This document shows, in pieces, positions 12,633 through 14,480 of a stretch of 64,000 bases of DNA. A program made the translations under genes and the position numbers. This DNA is from Methanolacinia petrolearia DSM 11571 (GTDB lineage: Archaea; Halobacteriota; Methanomicrobia; Methanomicrobiales; Methanomicrobiaceae), in the NCBI RefSeq assembly GCF_000147875.1, contig NC_014507.1, positions 1,550,001 to 1,614,000 of the forward strand. The letters are read 5' to 3'. The number at the start of each line of letters is the position of its first letter. The first letter of the stretch is position 1. Below the pieces are notes generated by a model. The model had not been told where the DNA came from. It saw only the letters and a list, made by a program, of their open reading frames with translations, and did no database searches.

Positions 12633-12704
12633 GCGTCGATAGTGTAGCGGTTATCACTAGGCGTTGCCAACGCCTAAACTCGGGTTCGATTCCCGGTCGA
12701 CGCA
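12633..12704 (+). tRNA. tRNA-Gly (anticodon GCC)
   Basis: A full cloverleaf is visible: acceptor GCGTCGA pairs with TCGACGC, the anticodon stem AGGCG/CGCCT encloses the loop TTGCCAA (anticodon GCC), and the T arm is CGGG-TTCGATT-CCCG. The discriminator base is A and CCA is not encoded. A TATA-like TTTATATTGA at 12561-12570 sits at a suitable distance. The 3' end is duplicated at 13550-13563 (see the island entry). Confidence 0.96.
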
Positions 12705-12706
12705 CT
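12693..12706 (+). repeat. Putative attachment site, tRNA copy
   Basis: Copy of the 14-base direct repeat inside the 3' end of tRNA-Gly. The partner is at 13550-13563. Repeat is seen directly; the attachment-site role is inferred. Confidence 0.6.
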
Positions 12707-12922
12707 CTTTCTTTAGAATTTTATGAAATATTTGAGAATATTTAAATTTTTTTCCCCTTTTACAACTCAATATTACCTGCCGGTTTTATAAGGATTAAAT
12801 TGTTATTTTTAACTCCTTCATCCGAATCATTGATTTTTCTGTCATTATATTATCTTTAGATTATCAAAAACTAATTTCATATCATCAAAAACTTTTTATA
12901 TTGAATACTAGTATTGTGGATT

Positions 12923-13312
12923 ATGCCACAAAATGATAAACCATCCATAATTTTTGGATCAGTGATTACCCAGTTGAAAGAAGAAGAAATAGAAGAAATA
13001 AAAGAAAAGAGCATCCCGGTATCCAGTGAGACCCTTATCAATTCTACAGTTCTTTATAACAGGATGTATCTACCCAAGGTTGAGTTCTATAAAAAAGCTG
13101 AGGATTTATCTGAAAAAGCTTTAGATGATTCGTTAACCAAAATTGGGTACCTTAGTGAGAAATTAAACAAGCAATTTGAGGGAATGGTAAAAAAGCCCAA
13201 CAAAGTAGAAGTTTCATTTGGTTTAAAAGTAAGTGGAGGGATTGCATTATTCGTAGAAGCTACCGGTTCATGTGAATTTGCTGTAAAACTAACCTGGGAA
13301 TCCAAATCCTAA
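12923..13312 (+). CDS. Trypco1-like (trypsin-co-occurring domain 1) protein
   Basis: A 129-residue soluble protein. The C-terminal third (about residues 95-127: VEVSFGLKVSGG, then a Val-Glu-Ala stretch, then F-A-V-K-L-T-W-E) matches my recollection of the Trypco1/CU044_2847 family: a V-E-V-x-F-G-L-K-L start, a central A-x-V/F-A segment and a final V-x-L-T-W. The helical middle (E-K-A-L-D-D-S-L-T-K-I-G-Y-L-S-E-K-L) also fits. Trypco1 proteins are proposed partners of trypsin-like proteases in bacterial conflict systems; no protease gene is adjacent. ATG 12923 is preferred to a TTG at 12914. A TATA-like box lies at about 12890-12903. The family call is moderate. Confidence 0.6.
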   Translation: MPQNDKPSIIFGSVITQLKEEEIEEIKEKSIPVSSETLINSTVLYNRMYLPKVEFYKKAEDLSEKALDDSLTKIGYLSEKLNKQFEGMVKKPNKVEVSFGLKVSGGIALFVEATGSCEFAVKLTWESKS

Positions 13313-13549
13313 ATTATTAAAATTAAGAACTAAATTATAACAAAAGTATAGCTAAGGGTGTAGAAAATTATCTTTTGTGATTAATCAATAATTTTTAAAA
13401 TACCTATCCCAACAACCGGAAAATACGAAAACAGAGAACCTCATATAGGGAAAATTACCAAGGAAAATTAATAGTTAATAAAAGGGAATCCAATAACAAG
13501 AACGAGCAGAATCCATAAAATGACGGGAATCTAATTTAAGATTAAACCA

Positions 13550-13563
13550 CCGGTCGACGCACT
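13550..13563 (+). repeat. Putative attachment site, distal copy
   Basis: Second copy of the 14-base tRNA-Gly 3'-end sequence, not part of a tRNA gene. It marks the far edge of the putative integrated segment. Confidence 0.6.
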
Positions 13564-13619
13564 TTTCTTTTGCGTTTCAGTTGCATTATGTTTGCTCTTC
13601 TCATCACGTTCAATATCAC

Positions 13620-13740
13620 AAAATCAAAATTGCAAACTTTATCCCGTCTCCTGCGATACAACGAATATCAAACACTGGTGATGAGATGAGGGGAGATCTT
13701 TTTTTCATATTCGTTTTGCTGTGTCTGGTTGCTGCTTTCG
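13620..13740 (+). repeat. Leader plus signal-peptide cassette, copy 1
   Basis: About 120 bases upstream of and into the lipoprotein gene at 13686 are nearly the same as 14360-14480. They share the 21-base run from TTTATCCC to GATACAA, the CTGGTGATGAGATGA ribosome-site/start region, and the start of the signal peptide. After the lipobox the two proteins are unrelated. Confidence 0.75.
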
Positions 13741-14348
13741 TTATTGTTGTGGGATGCACGGGGGGCACCAGTACTGATATTGGAGAGGTAAAAAGTTTTG
13801 ATGATTATGGGATTGTGATTGACGGGAAGATCACCGATTCTGAATGGAATGCTCTTAAAGACTTCAGTTATGCAACACTTGATCAAATACAGAAAAATAA
13901 CTATAATGGAACTCTGTTTCCTATAATCGAAAAGAGCATAGTTGTAATCGGCAACGGTGATGGCAATGACATTCCGGATTTGTATTTTGCCGAGCAGGCA
14001 AATGCACAGTTTGTTCAGGATTTGAATAAAGTGGGGGTTATATTAAATGGCAGAATTTGTATTCGGGATACTGAAATTCTATATCCCTGCATTGCAATTG
14101 GCTATTCAGATAACCAGGTATTTATATACAAAGATTATAGTGAACATCAATTGTCAGATGTGCCCGATGAAAGAGACTTCTCCGATTCGATGTATTACAA
14201 ATCAAATTCTGATAATACAGTCTATGAAGGGATAATCTACGATATTGGAGATGATATTGAAACAATCTCGCGAGGAGGAAAATTAAAAATCATAACACTT
14301 GCAGTATCAACAAAAGATGTAGAGCTCTCCAAAATCTTACTTAAATAA
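13686..14348 (+). CDS. Predicted lipoprotein, function unknown
   Basis: A 220-residue protein starting with a lipoprotein signal (hydrophobic core, lipobox V-V-G-C at residue about 21). The mature part contains DYGIVIDGKITDSEWNAL, reminiscent of the start of carbohydrate-binding CBM9-like DOMON folds, where an I-DG-x-x-x-x-x-EW pattern is common; I hold this loosely. The ATG at 13686 sits behind GGTGATGAG and matches the start of the paralogous leader in the next gene. The frame is open 35 codons upstream, but that part is the shared leader. Located outside the membrane. Confidence 0.7.
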   Translation: MRGDLFFIFVLLCLVAAFVIVVGCTGGTSTDIGEVKSFDDYGIVIDGKITDSEWNALKDFSYATLDQIQKNNYNGTLFPIIEKSIVVIGNGDGNDIPDLYFAEQANAQFVQDLNKVGVILNGRICIRDTEILYPCIAIGYSDNQVFIYKDYSEHQLSDVPDERDFSDSMYYKSNSDNTVYEGIIYDIGDDIETISRGGKLKIITLAVSTKDVELSKILLK

Positions 14349-14359
14349 CTCTTTTTTTC

Positions 14360-14480
14360 AAAATCAGAATTACAAGCTTTATCCCGTCTCCTGCGATACA
14401 ATCTATATCAAATGCTGGTGATGAGATGAAGGGAGATCTTTTTTTCGTATTCGTTTTGCTATGTCTGGTTGCAGTTTTCC
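14360..14480 (+). repeat. Leader plus signal-peptide cassette, copy 2
   Basis: Second copy of the cassette described at 13620-13740, here in front of and into the glycoside hydrolase family 3 lipoprotein gene. Confidence 0.75.

What the first reader, a model, noticed from the sequence alone, without database searches (positions are those of the whole stretch)
12693..13563. tRNA-Gly-anchored mini-island with an orphan Trypco1-like gene
A 14-base repeat of the tRNA 3' end bounds 0.86 kb of AT-rich DNA holding one gene. Trypco1 domains are known from predicted bacterial conflict systems with trypsin-like proteases and effector-associated domains. Here it stands alone, in an archaeon, in an integrase-less cassette. 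It may be a minimal immunity or regulatory part that works with a partner elsewhere.
Basis: partly seen in the sequence, partly recalled or inferred. Interest (0 to 1): 0.7.

Follow-up and report, generated by a model that had tools for sequence, protein, structure and literature searches.

The report
tRNA-Gly mini-island with orphan Trypco1
A methanogen carries an 857-base insertion that slipped into the end of a tRNA-Gly gene, bounded by a 14-base copy of that end and holding one small gene whose relatives sit beside proteases in predicted anti-virus systems; the insertion is real, but what the lone gene does is unproven.

Summary
The tRNA-Gly(GCC) 3' end (12693-12706, CCGGTCGACGCACT) is repeated at 13550-13563, and this 14-mer occurs nowhere else in the 2.84 Mb genome. 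Two same-genus genomes have the same tRNA and downstream glycosidase-like gene with the insert precisely missing and one copy of the 14-mer: a clean filled/empty comparison. The 843 bp between the repeats is 29.5% G+C and has one gene (12923-13312, 129 aa) that matches Pfam Trypco1 (45.6 bits, cut-off 24.6). No integrase or fragment was found in it. It is the genome's only Trypco1; 60 relatives have none. Elsewhere Trypco1 usually lies directly upstream of a trypsin-like protein (in Methanosarcina often SIR2-CHAT or a Lon-type protease); a few are solo. The genome has one trypsin-like gene elsewhere, but a sister species keeps it without Trypco1, so that pairing is only possible. Best reading: a CIME-like, integrase-less remnant or cargo cassette carrying a diverged Trypco1 adaptor that, if active, works in trans on a peptidase. 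It is a small new variant of a known kind.

The parts
12633..12704 (+). tRNA-Gly (anticodon GCC), the integration target, intact
   Evidence: ARAGORN (to 12705); Rfam tRNA 62.2 bits
12693..12706 (+). left 14-bp repeat CCGGTCGACGCACT (attL-like; 3' end of the tRNA plus CT)
12707..13549 (.). inserted DNA between the repeats, 843 bp, 29.5% G+C, absent from G001 and G002
12895..12902 (+). archaeal TATA-box-like TTTATATT about 24 nt before the ATG; suggests a leaderless transcript (inference from sequence only)
   Evidence: sequence
12923..13312 (+). Trypco1 gene, 129 aa; residues 61-126 match profile positions 32-97 of 98; the first 60 residues have no family match
   Evidence: PF19493 45.6 bits (cut-off 24.6); NF041216 38.4 bits (cut-off 23)
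13550..13563 (+). right 14-bp repeat (attR-like), interpreted as the original chromosomal tRNA 3' end

Best explanation
A small element entered the chromosome by site-specific recombination at the 3' end of tRNA-Gly(GCC), the way tyrosine-recombinase elements do: the element's own copy of the tRNA end restored the tRNA and the displaced end now marks the right border. It carries no integrase, so it is a CIME-like remnant or a passenger cassette that needs a recombinase in trans. Its one gene makes a diverged Trypco1 protein. Trypco1 proteins are predicted adaptors of peptidases in NTPase-based conflict systems, so the most likely activity, if it is expressed, is binding and tuning a peptidase encoded elsewhere, such as the genome's single trypsin-like protein or one on an incoming element. 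Shown: insertion, boundary, family, absence of integrase and of partner neighbours. Inferred: the recombinase type, expression, and adaptor action in trans (the last perhaps one chance in three).
For: The 14-mer is unique to the two borders in the whole genome. Precise empty sites in G001 and G002 each have one copy of the repeat followed directly by the shared downstream DNA. No comparable insertion is seen at 20 tRNA-Gly(GCC) loci of related genomes, these two included. Trypco1 match above the curated cut-offs of two libraries. No integrase, trypsin or phage family in the other reading frames of the insert. Relatives lie directly upstream of peptidase-type genes: trypsin-like in 11, SIR2-CHAT in 5, Lon-type in 10 of 32 non-redundant loci. 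One Trypsin_2 gene in the genome. Literature: Trypco1 defined by co-occurrence with trypsin (PMC7159879) and called an adapter (PMC10907252); CIME definition (PMC5704250); tRNA genes as main archaeal integration sites (PMC8371274).
Against: No recombinase has been tied to the site; the three integrase genes in the genome lie elsewhere and no other copy of the 14-mer exists. The genome's trypsin is kept by a sister species with no Trypco1. The canonical N-terminal third of the Trypco1 profile is not recognisable, the branch is long, and the predicted structure is weak (mean pLDDT 54), so function may be altered or lost.
Confidence: 0.6

Rival explanations
1. Decay product: a larger integrated element carrying a complete Trypco1-trypsin-STAND operon plus integrase lost everything but the first gene, which is now drifting.
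For: Long branch and unrecognised N-terminal third; non-coding flanks of 23-27% G+C on either side of the gene; CIMEs arise by decay (PMC5704250).
Against: The reading frame is intact and the family's invariant residues P92, F99 and W125 are kept; no trypsin, STAND or integrase fragments in the remaining reading frames.
Confidence: 0.3
2. A self-contained one-gene cassette that is moved in trans by the recombinase of another element using the same tRNA-Gly site.
For: Sharp ends, small size, intact gene, empty sites in sisters.
Against: No second copy in the genome, no viral, phage or plasmid record, no element with the same 14-mer elsewhere in the genome.
Confidence: 0.2
3. The protein is an inhibitor or decoy that blocks a peptidase of a resident or competing conflict system rather than an adaptor that serves it.
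For: It is alone, on an insertion, and lacks the recognisable N-terminal part of the domain.
Against: No direct evidence; no tested inhibitory role of a Trypco1 protein appears in the papers found.
Confidence: 0.12
4. The insert is ancestral and was lost from the sister genomes, or it arose by some event other than site-specific recombination.
For: Only three genomes of the genus were available.
Against: The locus is empty in every relative examined, composition looks foreign, and the repeat is exactly a tRNA 3' end, the classic signature of site-specific integration.
Confidence: 0.04

Closest known systems
CIME (cis-mobilizable element) and integrase-less genomic islands at tRNA or tmRNA genes, e.g. 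Dehalococcoides ssrA islands without an integration module (PMC3146451)
   Same: Bounded by direct repeats of an RNA gene 3' end; no integration or transfer genes.
   Different: Much smaller (857 bp, one gene), archaeal, single rather than tandem, and no helper element with the same site is known here.
Trypco1 domain (PF19493 / NCBIfam CU044_2847, NF041216) of VMAP and other NTP-dependent conflict systems (PMC7159879)
   Same: C-terminal two thirds of the domain, including the P...VxVxFG...W core, above curated cut-offs.
   Different: N-terminal third not recognisable; no trypsin or NTPase neighbour; lies in a repeat-bounded insertion.
Solo Trypco1 genes of other archaea of the phylum (L063; L067, L075)
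   Same: Archaeal Trypco1 with no trypsin, SIR2-CHAT or Lon neighbour.
   Different: L067 and L075 belong to the family that is Lon-linked in Methanosarcina; L063 lies between two helicase-like genes, with no tRNA closer than about 5.8 kb.

Membership tests
Trypco1 (PF19493) | Profile match above the curated cut-off | tested here: met
   45.6 vs 24.6 bits; also NF041216 38.4 vs 23 bits
Trypco1 (PF19493) | Full domain length | tested here: not met
   Match covers profile positions 32-97 of 98; first 60 residues unmatched. Several Methanosarcina-type members also match only from position 24-32, so this does not by itself exclude membership
Trypco1 (PF19493) | Neighbouring trypsin-like peptidase gene (the property that named the family) | tested here: not met
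   Only gene in the insert; no trypsin-like gene among the flanking ORFs. The genome's one trypsin-like gene is about 1.35 Mb away
VMAP / MoxR-vWA ternary conflict system | vWA, MoxR ATPase and VMAP proteins encoded together | not tested
   Nothing of the kind was seen in the flanking ORFs, but vWA, MoxR, VMAP and EAD families were not searched genome-wide
CIME-like integrated element | attL and attR formed by a direct repeat of the target gene end | tested here: met
CIME-like integrated element | Empty site in relatives with a single copy of the repeat | tested here: met
   G001 and G002
CIME-like integrated element | No integrase or transfer genes inside | tested here: met
CIME-like integrated element | Borders still functional for excision in trans | not testable with these tools
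   needs an excision PCR or a recombination assay

The most novel reading that the evidence does not exclude
Trypco1 is a portable, partner-switching peptidase adaptor (trypsin, SIR2-CHAT, Lon-type), and this archaeal island is a one-gene unit that spreads it alone through tRNA sites to couple with, or block, peptidases already present in the host.
Probability: 0.15. Interest if true: 0.65.

Novelty: new variant of a known kind. Interest (0 to 1): 0.35.

Why it matters
It is an unusually small and clean example of an integrase-less tRNA-bounded insertion in an archaeon, with natural empty-site controls, carrying only a conflict-system accessory gene. If the protein works in trans, it would show that such adaptors move separately from their peptidases. 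The survey also shows archaeal Trypco1 genes beside three different peptidase-type partners, which gives a way to test what the domain does.

Tried and rejected
A trypsin gene as partner in a second tRNA-bounded island: the 295-aa trypsin lies 3' of tRNA-Ser, but the only 13-nt tRNA-Ser repeat found falls inside the trypsin gene, so it is not a boundary, although G002 lacks the trypsin there. Longer islands at tRNA-Gly in relatives: the 12-14 nt matches in L113, L115 and L125 look like chance (L113 and L115 span ordinary chromosomal genes); tandem tRNA-Gly genes explain L114 and L118. Viral, phage or plasmid carriage: no match. Solved-structure relatives: only helical look-alikes and insignificant hits. 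Fold search not run because the model was too weak. Low-scoring Rfam hits other than the tRNA are below their cut-offs.

Full report
Observation. The window lies in a single-contig 2,843,290-bp genome. A tRNA-Gly(GCC) gene ends at 12704. Its last 12 bases plus CT, CCGGTCGACGCACT, recur at 13550-13563, 857 bp on. This 14-mer occurs only at those two places in the genome, and the reversed control pattern not at all. The 843 bp between them is 29.5% G+C against 45.8% for the window, with non-coding flanks of 23-27%; about 3% of equal windows are as AT-rich, so composition alone is only mild support, since the lipoprotein-like gene to the right is also AT-rich.

Empty sites. Two same-genus genomes carry the same tRNA with conserved upstream and downstream DNA. 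In both, the tRNA 3' end runs straight into the DNA that follows the right repeat here, with one copy of CCGGTCGACGCACT. Twenty tRNA-Gly(GCC) loci from related genomes, these two included, show no comparable bounded insertion. The right-hand copy therefore most likely is the original tRNA end and the left-hand copy came with the element, as in site-specific integration at tRNA genes, the preferred sites in archaea (PMC8371274).

The gene. ATG 12923 to stop 13312 encodes 129 aa. Residues 61-126 match Trypco1 (PF19493) at 45.6 bits, E=1.1e-11, and NCBIfam CU044_2847 at 38.4 bits, both over the curated cut-offs. The first 60 residues match nothing, and the profile's first 31 positions are not covered. 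An AlphaFold model is weak (mean pLDDT 54) but suggests a helix at 52-86 and two strands at 94-104 and 116-126. A TATA-like TTTATATT about 24 nt before the ATG suggests a leaderless transcript (inference). No integrase, phage or peptidase fragment was found in the other frames of the insert, and there is no second copy of the insert in the genome.

Relatives and partners. Trypco1 is absent from 60 relatives and present in 20 of 392 sampled genomes of the phylum above the cut-off. Of 25 further loci from that search, 10 have a Lon-type (S16) protein just downstream, 5 a SIR2-CHAT protein, 4 a trypsin-like protein, 4 none of these, and 2 end at contig edges. Seven more loci from bacterial and Methanosarcina genomes have a trypsin-like protein directly downstream; in the two of these that were annotated it is fused to nSTAND1-WD40 (L095) or NB-ARC-TPR (L094). 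In Methanosarcina, the trypsin-linked Trypco1 of L095 clusters with the SIR2-CHAT-linked ones, which suggests partner exchange. The window protein is on a long branch and is not placed firmly.

Possible partner here. The genome has one Trypsin_2 gene, 295 aa, next to tRNA-Ser. G001 keeps it at 96% identity but has no Trypco1, so the two are not strictly linked. CHAT is absent and nSTAND1 has only short matches below the cut-off.

Conclusion. The insertion and the protein family are well supported. The mechanism of entry is inferred from the borders. The function is the weak point: adaptor action in trans is the most likely single reading, with decay and inhibition as live alternatives. The finding is a small new variant of CIME-like (PMC5704250) tRNA-bounded insertions with an uncommon cargo.

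Noticed in passing
L065 7874-9384, L069 7773-9323 and eight further Methanosarcina-type loci: A Trypco1-like gene directly upstream of a Lon-type (S16) protease domain protein, with the GPSAG serine motif in L069; a conserved chromosomal pair, near a cysS-like gene in L065 and L069.
   Followed up: partly
L058, L059, L060, L061, L099: Trypco1 directly upstream of a SIR2-CHAT protein in Methanosarcinaceae; L061 also has an nSTAND1-WD40 protein next to it.
   Followed up: partly
window 13612-13732 and 14359-14480: Repeated leader DNA and lipoprotein start of two neighbouring genes; G001 and G002 have one copy and lack the 220-aa lipoprotein-like gene (13686-14348).
   Followed up: partly
L082 8560-9654: Trypsin-like gene 3' of tRNA-Ser, present in G001, missing at that tRNA in G002, where other sequence follows the tRNA.
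   Followed up: partly
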